From NCBI GenBank assembly GCA_006503475.1, contig RSEH01000316.1, positions 1 through 49,908 of the forward strand: a stretch of DNA of 49,908 nt, written 5' to 3'. The position numbers and the translations under genes are program-made. This DNA is from Stentor roeselii. Lineage: Eukaryota; Ciliophora; Heterotrichea; Heterotrichida; Stentoridae. The notes under the pieces were generated by a model. That model worked only from the letters and a program-made list of their open reading frames with translations. It searched no databases and was not told the DNA's origin. Shown one piece after another: positions 1 through 49,908 of the stretch (its first letter is position 1; each line of letters opens with the position of its first letter).

Positions 1-465
<465 letters not shown>

Positions 466-46105: not shown

Positions 46106-49100
46106 TCAGAATATCAAGAAAAATATCGTATTCGGCAGTGTATCAATAGGCGCAACTTTAATCGAATTCCTTTTCCAAGTCGCAGGCCTAAACACATTTT
46201 GAATATTGACCCTCCTCTCAGAAATTTCTTTCATAGCTGTAAAAGCATTTTTCCTTCTCTCCACCTTATCAGTAAACTTCTCAATAAGTCCCATAAACGA
46301 GGCAAAAGTTCCCATCATTCCAAAAATGGACCCAAGTAGAGCTCCCAAGAAAATAACCGACGATTGATTTTCAATCCTCTGAGTGACCATTGCCGTATCA
46401 CTTTCACTAATCATTATATCGACCCTAAGATGCAACTGCAAGTTAAGTCTGTCTAATTTTTACGTTTCTCTAGCAGCGACTGATCCAGCTTCAGGCATTT
46501 GCGCGACAGAAACATGAAACCCGGTTTCTTTATCAGGCCATTTGTCGATTTCACTTGTAAAGACCTGAATGTTTGTTACTGAAGGAGTGAACTTCAGGTG
46601 GATCTTTGATGGACTTGTGCCTCTGAATAACTTCGCTTTTGGAGGCTTGATTGAAGTGAAAATACTGCTGATTTCTTTTGGAATTGAGGAAGTTGCTGAA
46701 ATGTTTACTGTTAAAGCACTGGCAAAACTGAACTTTTCTTTTAGGATTAAACGAATTGAAGGGTTTTTTGATGTGAGATGAAGGGAGTCGTATTTTGAGT
46801 AAATGAAACAGTTTTCGTTGATTTTACCGCAAGTTATTGATTTTTTTGAATAGGATAAACCTGAATCTTGGTAATCGATTAATGGACTGCAATTTGAATC
46901 TTCTATGCAGGCTCCTCCGTAGATGTAAAAGGTTGAGTTGATTTCTAGGAATTTTGATGATATTTCTTCTTTTAAGGTTATTACTGGCACTAATGCTCTG
47001 ATTTCGTCGATGTTGTTCAAGGTGTACTCCAGAAATGCTGCTAAAATTGTTAGAATGCAAGCGAAACAGAAGAAAATAGTGAAAACTCCGCCGAAACTTG
47101 TTTTTCTGTGAATTACTGGAACTCCAAGTTCATTCCCATGATGACTCACAAACAAATCAATAATCTTTAACTTAACCCAAAGCTCATGAACACAAATACT
47201 AAAGAAGAGCAAAGCAGCCGAAATTCCAGCAAAAATATACCAAAGATCAGTGGTAAGTCCCTCAAGTCTTCCTAATCCACTTCGATAAACCGAAGGTTGA
47301 ATAGAGCTATTCTTAGGCAAATAAAACCCTAGTTTCGGAAAAGCAGATCCAATAGGACAAGCATAGCTTGAAGGGCACTGAAGACAAGAGCTAGCTCCAG
47401 GTCTATCATTATAATAATTTTCATCGCAAGGCATACACTGTTCAACACTAGTCGACGCCAAGATATCATTAACCCTTCCAGGAGGACAGTCCATGCAAAT
47501 TCCATTCAAAAAATAACTTCCTTGAGGGCAAGGTTCGCAAGATTCATTGAAAGTTCCAGGCGAGCAGTCAAGTTGAATTCCGTCATCAGTGTTAAACGAG
47601 ACTTTGATTAAGTTATTTGAGATCCTTCTGTAAGACTTGTAAACCTCATTGGACCCGCCGCCTCCGAAGATGTAGATCGAGTCTTCAAAGTGCACCCCGC
47701 TGTGCCCCCATAGTTCGAGCTGGTACCTGGTCGGAATTATCCAGTACTTCTCTGAGGACCTTTCGTAGACCAGCACTGTTGGAAGAAGGATCAAAGAGTA
47801 AATCGATCCTCCTAAGCGGATTATGTGATTTTCTGTCACTATCACTGTCGTTTCTGAACCGATCATTGACTGCTCTTGGAGAAGACCTAGTTGCTTAAAG
47901 GACTTTTCTATAAGTTCAAGTCCTTTAAATGTGAAATTCACCAGCTTCTGGTTTGGGTAGGAATTAAAGTCACTTCCTCCAACAATCAAAAGTGAGTAAA
48001 TCGTGTTATTCATTGCTTCTACCCAGCACTTCGCATCATACAAGTTGTTTAAAGTAACAACATCAGGAATTCTAATCCTCGCCTTATTCAAATCAAAAAG
48101 GTTACTCGCGAAATCATAAGTCCAGATTTCATCAAATCCCTTATCTTTATTTTTCCCTCCCACAATAAAAATCATGTCATTGTGGAAAGTCAAAGAACTT
48201 AAATACCTAACAGAAGGTCCGTCATTTTCACTGATAATTTTATACCAATACAACTCAGGTTCATGCAAATAATATAAATCGTTAAGCAACCCGCTTTCCC
48301 CAACGCCTCCGAATATTGCGAGTACATCGCCTTGAGTCTTGGAGCAAGCGAATAACTTGCGAGGAGAAGGAACAGCTCCTAATGTATTTAAACTTGTCCA
48401 AAGTATCTGGTCCACGTCGAATGCCCAGAGGTCATTGTAAAGAACCTCGACTTCGCTTGAGGCCCCGTTCGTGGCTCCGTTGCTTCCTCCAAAGATGTAG
48501 ATTTTTCGGTTTATTGTGAAAGAACAGTGGTACACTCGCTCACTTGGAGATAACCAGTTATTCACTAGAACTGAAAATGTTGGAGGGTTTGTTGAAAGGT
48601 CTATTTTATTGATTGAGTTGAAGACTGTTGTTGAATCACGGCCGAATAGAAGGTAAAGGACTGAATCGTCTTGAACTTTTGCACTCGCTATTGAACCTTT
48701 TTCGGTACCAAAGCCGAGGAAATGCCAGGTGCTTGTGGCGAAATTGAACTTATAGACTGTGTTGTGTTCATAAGTGCTTTCTGTTATTATTCCATATAAA
48801 ATATACATCTCATTGTTGTATATGCAGGAGTAATGATATAGTCGCATTAGAGGAGCCTTTCCATTAACAGTAACGATTTCCCAAAATTGTCCTTCAAGAT
48901 CATATCTAAACAATTCACTTCCAGTTTCAAGTCCAAGCACTAGACTATAAAACGAGTATCCAAATACATAAAGACTTCCATTAAAGTACTCAAGACTTGC
49001 ACCCATCCTAGGACTAGGAACTTTTCCATTATTTTCCATCTTCCTAGACTCCAGGGTGTTAATGTCAATTCTAAATAATTTTTACAAAACCAAGTCATTT

Positions 49101-49588
49101 ATATAATTACTTCCTTTCATACCTCCAAAAATAGCGACGAATTCAGAAGAGTTATAATTAAAAGACGTGAATCCAAAGCTCATCACATTCCCGATCTGAT
49201 GACCTTTTAATTCTTCTTTAGTCCATGCATTGTTTTCCAAGTTAAATATGAAAATTTCTGTAAAGTATCCAAATGTTAATATTTTTTTATCACTTCGAAG
49301 AATTGTTGAGAAAGTTGTGATGCCTGAAGGGATGTAGTCTGAATCAACTCGAATTTTCTTCCAGGTCATTGTTTTCAAGTTAAAAGAGTTTACATCTGAA
49401 ATGACTTTGTCGTTGCTCATTTGGTTACCTCCTATTATATAAATTGAACTGGATGCTTTGTCTAGTACTGCAGATGGGGAAACCATTTGAGGAGGCGGAC
49501 TTCGTGATTCGGGAATTGACTTGAAGTTGATTGATGATGATAGGGAAATTAAAGAAATAATGATAATCATTATATTGGTAAAATCCAT
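46106..49588 (-). CDS. Kelch-repeat, cysteine-rich, multi-pass membrane protein; two 15-nt introns
   Basis: 1150 residues after removing introns at 49071-49085 and 46449-46463. A signal peptide (MIIIISLISLSSS) is followed by kelch repeats from about 30 to 560, with many G-G and Y...W pairs: SIYIIGGNQM, VAIFGGMKGSNYINDLVL-IDINTL across splice 1, IYIFGGSNGATNG, DSIYIFGGGGSN. A cysteine-rich stretch (about 670-750: CSPGTFNESCEPCPQGSY, CPPGRVND, CLQCPSSYACP) resembles GCC2/GCC3-TNFR-like modules. Two membrane helices follow (LWYIFAGISAALLFFSIC, FGGVFTIFFCFACILTILAAF), then a lumenal beta-rich region. Splice 2 brings in a third helix, LGALLGSIFGMMGTFASFMGLIEKF. This predicts an outward kelch propeller on a membrane anchor. 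The role is unknown. Confidence 0.85.
46449..46463 (-). other. 15-nt intron (phase 2), second of the kelch gene
   Basis: Read on the minus strand it is GTAAAAATTAGACAG. Retained, it stops the frame after AARET; removed, it gives AARETLNLQLHLRVD and adds the last 118 residues with the third membrane helix. It shares its first nine bases with the other intron of this gene. Confidence 0.85.
49071..49085 (-). other. 15-nt intron (phase 2), first of the kelch gene
   Basis: Read on the minus strand it is GTAAAAATTATTTAG. Removal turns NDLVL-stop into NDLVLIDINTLESRKMENN, restoring a kelch blade that continues with PSPRMG. It is supported by repeat structure on both sides. Confidence 0.88.
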
Positions 49589-49804
49589 TATTTGAACAAT
49601 TAGTAATTTTTTAAGATTTTGGTAAATTTTTTGATTGATTATAGACTTTTAGAATTATTATTGAATTTATAATGGTCCTGATACTAAGATATTAATTGGT
49701 GAATTTCTACTAATTTTCAATACTTATTTAAATTTCAATTAGCTTACGAAATACTTTATAAAAAAACAGCAGCATTAATATTACTAACAGCTTAGAGTAA
49801 TCTT
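49589..49804. other. AT-rich spacer between Fanzor-like gene end and kelch gene start
   Basis: 216 bases, about as AT-rich as the other spacers. Directly after the Fanzor-like stop (minus strand) there is a weak hairpin around AGCTGTTAGTAATATTAATG (49774-49800 region). In known Fanzor and TnpB loci the guide RNA is encoded at or past the 3' end of the gene, so this segment is the place to look; nothing in the sequence alone proves it. Confidence 0.4.
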
Positions 49805-49908
49805 CTATGGAGAACTTTGGCGTCTGAGAAGCTTCGGACGCTTTTTTCCAGCTTTTTTCATCTCCAGGCATTTCAGGATGTTGATGGCACCATTAATATC
49901 TCTATTCC
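49805..49908 (-). CDS. C-terminus of a TnpB/Fanzor-type RNA-guided nuclease (partial, runs off the window)
   Basis: Thirty-four residues and a TAG stop are visible on the minus strand, reading in from the right edge. The segment (W/R/G)-NRDINGAINILKCLEM carries the RuvC-III signature of TnpB, Fanzor and Cas12 relatives, (D/N)RDxNAAxNI, whose Asp is the last catalytic residue. The following KKAGKKRPKLLRR matches the basic tail with an R-P pair common in eukaryotic and giant-virus Fanzors, unlike most bacterial TnpBs. G+C is roughly twice that of the adjacent spacer. Fanzors are usually carried by DNA transposons. Whether the gene is intact or part of an element cannot be seen here. The main alternative is a bacterial IS605/IS607 TnpB. 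Confidence 0.65.
   Translation of the reverse strand, partial: NRDINGAINILKCLEMKKAGKKRPKLLRRQSSP

What the first reader, a model, noticed from the sequence alone, without database searches (positions are those of the whole stretch)
49805..49908. Fanzor-like RNA-guided nuclease C-terminus at the window edge
The minus-strand frame reads NRDINGAINILK...GKKRPKLL-stop. The RDxNGAxNI motif is the RuvC-III core of TnpB/Fanzor nucleases, and the R-P in the tail is typical of the eukaryotic (Fanzor) branch. A Fanzor in a ciliate macronuclear genome with 15-nt introns would be an unusual host. A transposon-linked nuclease kept in a macronucleus raises the question of domestication, since ciliates normally eliminate transposons from it. 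Composition also changes sharply at the stop codon.
Basis: partly seen in the sequence, partly recalled or inferred. Interest (0 to 1): 0.85.

Follow-up and report, generated by a model that had tools for sequence, protein, structure and literature searches.

The report
Mobile Fanzor nuclease in a ciliate
The window ends inside one of at least nine near-identical copies of a jumping element that encodes a Fanzor-type RNA-guided DNA cutter, in what looks like the working (somatic) genome of a Stentor-like ciliate, and some copies appear to interrupt ordinary genes.

Summary
The minus-strand frame at 49805-49906 is the C-terminus of a Fanzor1-type protein. The window is a whole contig (C249) that stops inside the gene, so the rest was read from a 98%-identical relative on C499: a 608-aa frame, open at its 5' end, with RuvC-I, the catalytic-glutamate motif, zinc ribbon and RuvC-III, closest to solved Fanzor1 proteins (SpuFz1, E=1.6e-26). 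Domestication is not supported: nine near-identical right ends lie in nine different flanks, eight of these contigs stop inside the element, and decayed relatives exist. The right border is 26 nt after the stop codon. A G-rich left end was found on two contigs and tied to the element through a helicase gene split between C49 and C394. The ends share no inverted repeat. At three empty sites (two paralogous, one inferred) GGTAATA directly precedes the right flank; all nine occupied ends read AGTAATA. I infer a Fanzor1-only mobile element whose guide RNA runs into the right flank and whose target motif is (G)GTAATA. Guide RNA, cleavage, the mobilising enzyme, somatic copy number and the species were not shown; one of two left ends lacks the motif.

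The parts
49805..49908 (-). C-terminal 33 codons plus stop of a Fanzor1-type nuclease: RuvC-III motif NRDINGAINI and RP tail; cut by the contig end
49779..49804 (-). 26-nt non-coding right end of the element; same boundary in nine of nine copies
49779..49784 (-). GTAATA at the right border: host target motif or its copy; preceded by A here, by G at the three empty sites
49759..49778 (-). first 20 nt of host flank; by analogy with SpuFz1 the predicted guide of this copy (inference)
   Evidence: guide logic from PMC10432273 passages
49831..49831 (-). private difference of this copy (T in C499, C here, element strand); the contig ends exactly 77 bp beyond it, as a k-mer assembler would do
49589..49778 (.). 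AT-rich host intergenic flank (GC 0.195), 190 bp to the start codon of the next gene
46449..49588 (-). host kelch-repeat protein gene next to the insertion (context, not part of the element); 15-nt introns proposed at 49071-49085 and 46449-46463

Best explanation
The window ends inside one copy of a compact mobile element whose only visible gene is a Fanzor1 nuclease. Shown: the gene family; nine near-identical right ends with one border and different flanks; a repeated left-end sequence on two contigs; no inverted repeat between the ends; GGTAATA directly before the right flank at three empty sites. Well supported but indirect: that the left end belongs to this element (it and a right end are the two sides of one split helicase gene) and that some insertions interrupt coding sequence. 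Inferred: a short RNA is made from the 3' end of the gene into the flank, the flank part is the guide, and the protein cuts uninserted copies of that site next to (G)GTAATA, so that repair from an inserted copy restores and spreads the element, as proposed for TnpB (recalled). The enzyme that makes new insertions is unknown. In a polyploid macronucleus such cutting would drive the element through the many chromosome copies.
For: SpuFz1 E=1.6e-26, PpFz1 3.7e-23, GtFz1 2.4e-8; RuvC-I VDPG aligned to PpFz1 and GtFz1 (weak: E=0.0021 and 0.11; SpuFz1 not listed there); catalytic E motif, zinc ribbon and RuvC-III. Nine right ends whose first 170 flank bases match only themselves, except for paralogues on C448 and C112. 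The innermost private difference plus 77 bp equals the element length on the contig in three of three copies that differ from C499. Empty sites: C448, C112, C49+C394 joined frame of 598 codons. GTAATA accounts for 22 of 6102 TA sites of the window, so finding it at both paralogous sites by chance is about 1.3e-5 if only TA were required. C268's first 20 flank bases match the C448 empty site 20 of 20.
Against: No RNA, cleavage or expression data. RNA folds of the right end were not better than shuffles in four of five (z -0.47; -0.17, 0.73, -0.44 and, for C268, -2.92). One of two left ends (C265) lacks GGTAATA. No contig holds a complete element: the part between the left end and the C499 frame is missing, so the start of the frame is a guess. 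If the motif were only GTAATA, the occupied end could be cut by its own guide. C130's predicted guide matches the C112 site only 13 of 20. No transposase was linked, and DDE_3 found none in the genome (six-frame search, rang in 3 of 14 control genomes).
Confidence: 0.78

Rival explanations
1. The copies are germline-limited elements (IES-like) that are normally cut out of the macronucleus; the assembly caught germline or partly retained forms. The GTAATA on both sides would then be a TA-bearing repeat whose single remaining copy restores the gene. (This shares the family and mobility claims with the best explanation and rivals only the somatic part.)
For: Joining C49 and C394 at one GTAATA restores an open helicase frame. 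Three of nine insertions lie in apparent coding sequence: a helicase (C394), a kinase (C130) and an unnamed predicted frame (C268). Blepharisma has TA-bound and partly retained IESs (PMC9942856, passages and section 17).
Against: Contigs run from unique flank into the element without a break at the junction and, where it can be checked, stop 77 bp past the last private difference; a common excised form should have given a contiguous gene or a break at the junction. No empty version of the same nine flanks was found with 170 bases of each. Read coverage was not available and the assembler is not known.
Confidence: 0.25
2. A domesticated host Fanzor with a somatic role.
For: C499 keeps a 608-aa open frame with the expected active-site motifs.
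Against: Many near-identical dispersed copies, decayed relatives with stops and shuffled pieces, and insertions in apparent genes.
Confidence: 0.05
3. Bacterial or viral DNA in the sample rather than a ciliate element.
For: TnpB relatives are common in bacteria; large viruses carry Fanzor genes (PMC3627910, section 5). The zinc-ribbon part also matches phage transposase families (best 8.3e-8).
Against: Flanking genes that were identified are eukaryotic-type (kelch, UPF1-like helicase, kinase, RING finger) and the assembly has telomere-like arrays. No relative was confirmed in viral contigs or prokaryote genomes; that tool had no positive control here and reaches mainly close relatives.
Confidence: 0.03

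Closest known systems
SpuFz1 / SPu-1 element of Spizellomyces punctatus (Fanzor1; PMC10432273 and PMC3627910, passages and section 5 read)
   Same: Homologous nuclease (E=1.6e-26); one-gene element; many copies; guide expected from the flank next to the gene's 3' end
   Different: SPu-1 has 33-bp inverted repeats and putative TA duplications; here the ends share none and the site is GGTAATA; the RuvC part has an acidic E/S/K-rich stretch, so that query 222-378 corresponds to 731-789 of the SpuFz1 chain
PpFz1 of Parasitella parasitica (9cf0) with its RuvC insertion (PMC11423790, passages read)
   Same: Second-best match (3.7e-23); also has an extra stretch in RuvC
   Different: Judged from the aligned pieces, its insertion lies at another place than the acidic stretch here (inference)
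Stand-alone tnpB elements of the IS200/IS605 group (recalled)
   Same: No inverted repeats at the ends, fixed short target retained on one side, guide read from the other flank
   Different: Eukaryotic Fanzor1 protein; Y1 transposase not searched for
IS607 elements, which carry Fanzor2 in eukaryotes (PMC6188088, PMC3627910, passages read)
   Same: No terminal inverted repeats
   Different: Protein is Fanzor1-like, not Fanzor2; serine recombinase not searched for

Membership tests
Fanzor1 | Sequence homology to characterised Fanzor1 from REC to C-terminus | tested here: met
   the three top PDB hits are Fanzor1 proteins each time (tested on the C499 relative)
Fanzor1 | RuvC triad D / E / D (SpuFz1 D383, E541, D606) | tested here: met
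   In the alignment, with one offset of 394, E541 and D606 fall on the E of DEFKTSS and the D of NRD in C499; the first D (VDPG) aligns only weakly to PpFz1 and GtFz1. Positions from PMC11423790 and PMC10432273 passages. The window itself holds only the last D
Fanzor1 | C4 zinc ribbon (TNB, PF07282) | tested here: met
   38 bits on the C499 relative, cut-off 26.3
Fanzor1 | Complete N-terminal WED/REC part | tested here: inconclusive
   C499 starts inside the frame; left ends give only possible first codons
Fanzor1 | Carried by a transposable element | tested here: met
Fanzor1 | RNA from the gene's 3' end into the flank; RNA-guided cleavage | not testable with these tools
   only folding was tried
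Bacterial TnpB | Reaches the NCBIfam guided_TnpB cut-off | tested here: not met
   33.2 bits against 100
Mariner-type Fanzor element (as SPu-1) | Terminal inverted repeats | tested here: not met
   (score 5 against shuffled mean 5.4, 814 of 1000 shuffles as good). Rests on one left end being paired with the right ends
Mariner-type Fanzor element (as SPu-1) | TA target duplication | tested here: inconclusive
   GTAATA on both sides in C49/C394, absent in C265
IS200/IS605 or IS607 element | Y1 or serine transposase in the genome | not tested

The most novel reading that the evidence does not exclude
A Fanzor1-only, repeat-less element lives and spreads in a ciliate somatic nucleus: it enters at GGTAATA, its flank-derived guide cuts uninserted copies of the site among the many macronuclear copies, and the single G-to-A difference at its own right border (AGTAATA) protects inserted copies. 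This would be an RNA-guided drive acting in soma.
Probability: 0.15. Interest if true: 0.9.

Novelty: new member of a known kind. Interest (0 to 1): 0.58.

Why it matters
Searches of the held open-access papers for Fanzor with ciliate, Stentor or macronucle turned up no report of a ciliate Fanzor (mostly listings, and most subscription papers are not held). Ciliates typically keep transposons out of the somatic nucleus (PMC9942856 section 17), so an RNA-guided nuclease element that seems to be retained there, with empty sites and a predicted target motif, makes the role of Fanzor in element survival directly testable. The GGTAATA motif also gives a ready hypothesis for a new nuclease specificity.

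Tried and rejected
Domestication: rejected (many copies). Inverted repeats: none found (the looser 15-nt search listed only the first 100 of 193 places and was inconclusive). Folded guide RNA at the right end: no signal above shuffles in four of five folds (C268 z=-2.92). A DNA hairpin ATTACT/AGTAAT at the right end is only suggestive (11 of 200 shuffles as good). No Rfam match in window and L004. C178 relic as a lead to the left end: too short. Paralogue-based searches for left flanks from C448 and C112 found none. DDE_3: none. The naive 15-nt intron counts over the window showed no peak; only the kelch-gene intron is convincing. Viral and prokaryote relatives: none confirmed among 3, 64 and 124 pattern matches. 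Sampling 100 contig starts plus 17 other contig ends did not reveal the left end by itself; one sampled start (C265) was recognised only after C49 was found; 19 further contig ends gave no other. A C265-C499 pairing (shared TTGAG) was considered and left open.

Full report
Observation. The window is the whole contig C249 of a 44.39-Mb, 522-contig genome. On the minus strand 49906-49805 reads NRDINGAINILKCLEMKKAGKKRPKLLRRQSSP-stop and is open at the contig end. These 33 residues give no Pfam match at E<=1. The same DNA, 98% identical, ends a 608-aa frame at C499:1-1827 that is open at its 5' end.

Identity. The C499 protein matches Pfam TNB (38 bits) and, among all PDB chains, three Fanzor1 proteins: SpuFz1 1.6e-26, PpFz1 3.7e-23, GtFz1 2.4e-8; the other two of five hits were 0.5 and 0.71. 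The N-terminal part alone gives PpFz1 1.5e-6, GtFz1 2.2e-4 and SpuFz1 0.024; a profile of the C-terminal part with two relatives gives SpuFz1 8.6e-39. RuvC-I (VSVDPG) is shared with two decayed relatives in the genome and aligns weakly to PpFz1 and GtFz1. SpuFz1's catalytic residues are D383, E541 and D606 (PMC11423790 and PMC10432273 passages); counted on the alignment with one offset of 394, E541 and D606 fall on the E of DEFKTSS and the D of NRD. The bacterial TnpB model stays below its cut-off (33.2 of 100); phage transposase families match the zinc-ribbon part (8.3e-8). An acidic E/S/K-rich stretch follows RuvC-I.

Host. CCCTAACA arrays lie at contig starts (for example C26, C40, C48) and, judging by positions, at contig ends; C40 seems to have both (capped list). 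This repeat is reported for the heterotrich Blepharisma (PMC9942806 passage). Only 1 of 100 sampled contig starts was telomeric. The neighbouring kelch gene has a 15-nt stretch GTAAAAATTATTTAG whose removal joins two kelch-coding frames, and probably a second, but a count over the window showed no peak at 15. Long frames end with all three stop codons (TAA 11, TAG 7, TGA 2). I read this as a heterotrich with the standard code, Stentor-like; that is inference and no species name was obtained. That Stentor has tiny introns rests on a cited title seen.

Copies. A DNA search found nine right ends at 97-100% identity: C499, C249, C268, C60, C130, C230, C319, C394, C68; two further hits were a relic (C178) and a low-complexity match (C168). 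The 27-nt end pattern with up to 3 mismatches occurs nine times, never in the control. All nine share the sequence to GTAATA, then the flanks differ. Eight of nine contigs end 76-130 bp inside the element; C499 ends after 1853 bp. Three copies differ from C499, and their contigs end 77 bp beyond the innermost difference (53+77=130, 35+77=112, 12+77=89). C230, C394 and C68 carry 77 bp, while C60 (89, no difference) and C319 (76) do not follow simply. Contigs below about 10 kb seem absent (the shortest seen, C500, is 10,043), which would explain why the inner repeat is missing. Decayed relatives lie on C461, C504, C401 and C178, with stops and rearranged pieces.

Empty sites and left end. C268's flank has a paralogue on C448 with no insertion. 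There the site lies in a 133-codon predicted frame without a confident family. C130's flank is part of a kinase-type gene whose paralogue on C112 is intact over 476 codons, at about 76% DNA identity. C394's flank opens straight into a 390-codon frame that begins inside a helicase domain. A search for that domain (22 matches listed) showed its first part, positions 2-87, at C49:119-337, reading towards the contig start. C49 ends in sequence shared exactly over 75 bp with the start of C265. Joining C49 and C394 at one GTAATA gives one 598-codon frame. This is what ties the left end to the element; no contig holds both. The left end is G-rich and is followed, 32-35 nt in, by ATGATGGAAATGGATATG, possibly the start of the Fanzor frame. 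The ends share no inverted repeat. At three of three empty sites the seven bases before the right flank are GGTAATA; at nine of nine occupied ends they are AGTAATA. The two left ends differ: C49 has GGTAATAGAT before the shared part, C265 has no such motif. So duplication of GTAATA, or a retained target as in IS200/IS605 elements (recalled), cannot be told apart.

Mechanism. By analogy with SpuFz1 (guide from the right flank, motif CATA; PMC10432273 passages; PMC11423790, names the motifs of SpuFz1 and GtFz1 the other way round in one sentence) the guide of this copy would be 49778-49759 and the motif (G)GTAATA. C268's predicted guide matches the empty C448 site 20 of 20; C130's matches C112 13 of 20. 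Guide RNA and cutting were not tested, and folding gave little support.

Somatic residence. The unbroken passage from flank into element argues that the inserted form dominates at these loci in the sequenced DNA. It is inference: reads were not available and the assembler is unknown. Retrotransposon sequences in a heterotrich macronucleus are on record (PMC9942856, section 17).

Print record. Fanzor with ciliate: 5 papers, 4 listed, none seen to report one (passages of PMC12203969, the others listing only). A broader mixed search listed 15 of 668 papers, none of the 15 holding Fanzor. TnpB with ciliate: 10 papers, 9 listed (passages of PMC6188088, PMC12203969 as above, the rest listing only). 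Fanzor with Stentor: 0. Fanzor with macronucle: 1, on PGBD5 (listing). Bao and Jurka's species table has no ciliate (PMC3627910 section 5). Yoon et al. (PMC10711439) has no occurrence of ciliate or Stentor in its main text. Saito et al. mention branches hosting SAR groups (PMC10432273 passage). Supplementary tables were not read.

Noticed in passing
L008 483-1422 against L066 559-1498 (C268 / C448): A 940-bp stretch with a RING-finger gene is inverted between two paralogous regions that are otherwise collinear.
   Followed up: partly
C401, C461, C504:150500-167240: Three contigs share kilobase stretches at 77-94% identity that include broken Fanzor relatives; C461:9280-11450 matches itself many times over, as a tandem array would.
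   Followed up: no
L172 (C265) left flank against C499 right flank: C265's left flank ends in TTGAG and C499's right flank begins with TTGAG; they may be two sides of one insertion that is not at GGTAATA.
   Followed up: partly
window 1-465: The other contig end lies in the 3' part of a beta-tubulin-like gene (recognised by eye, not searched), so that end too may break at a repeated sequence.
   Followed up: no
L171 about 1-75 (minus): The left end is a G-run sequence (GGGGGTGGCGAGGGTGGTGGGG) that could form a four-stranded structure; not tested.
   Followed up: no
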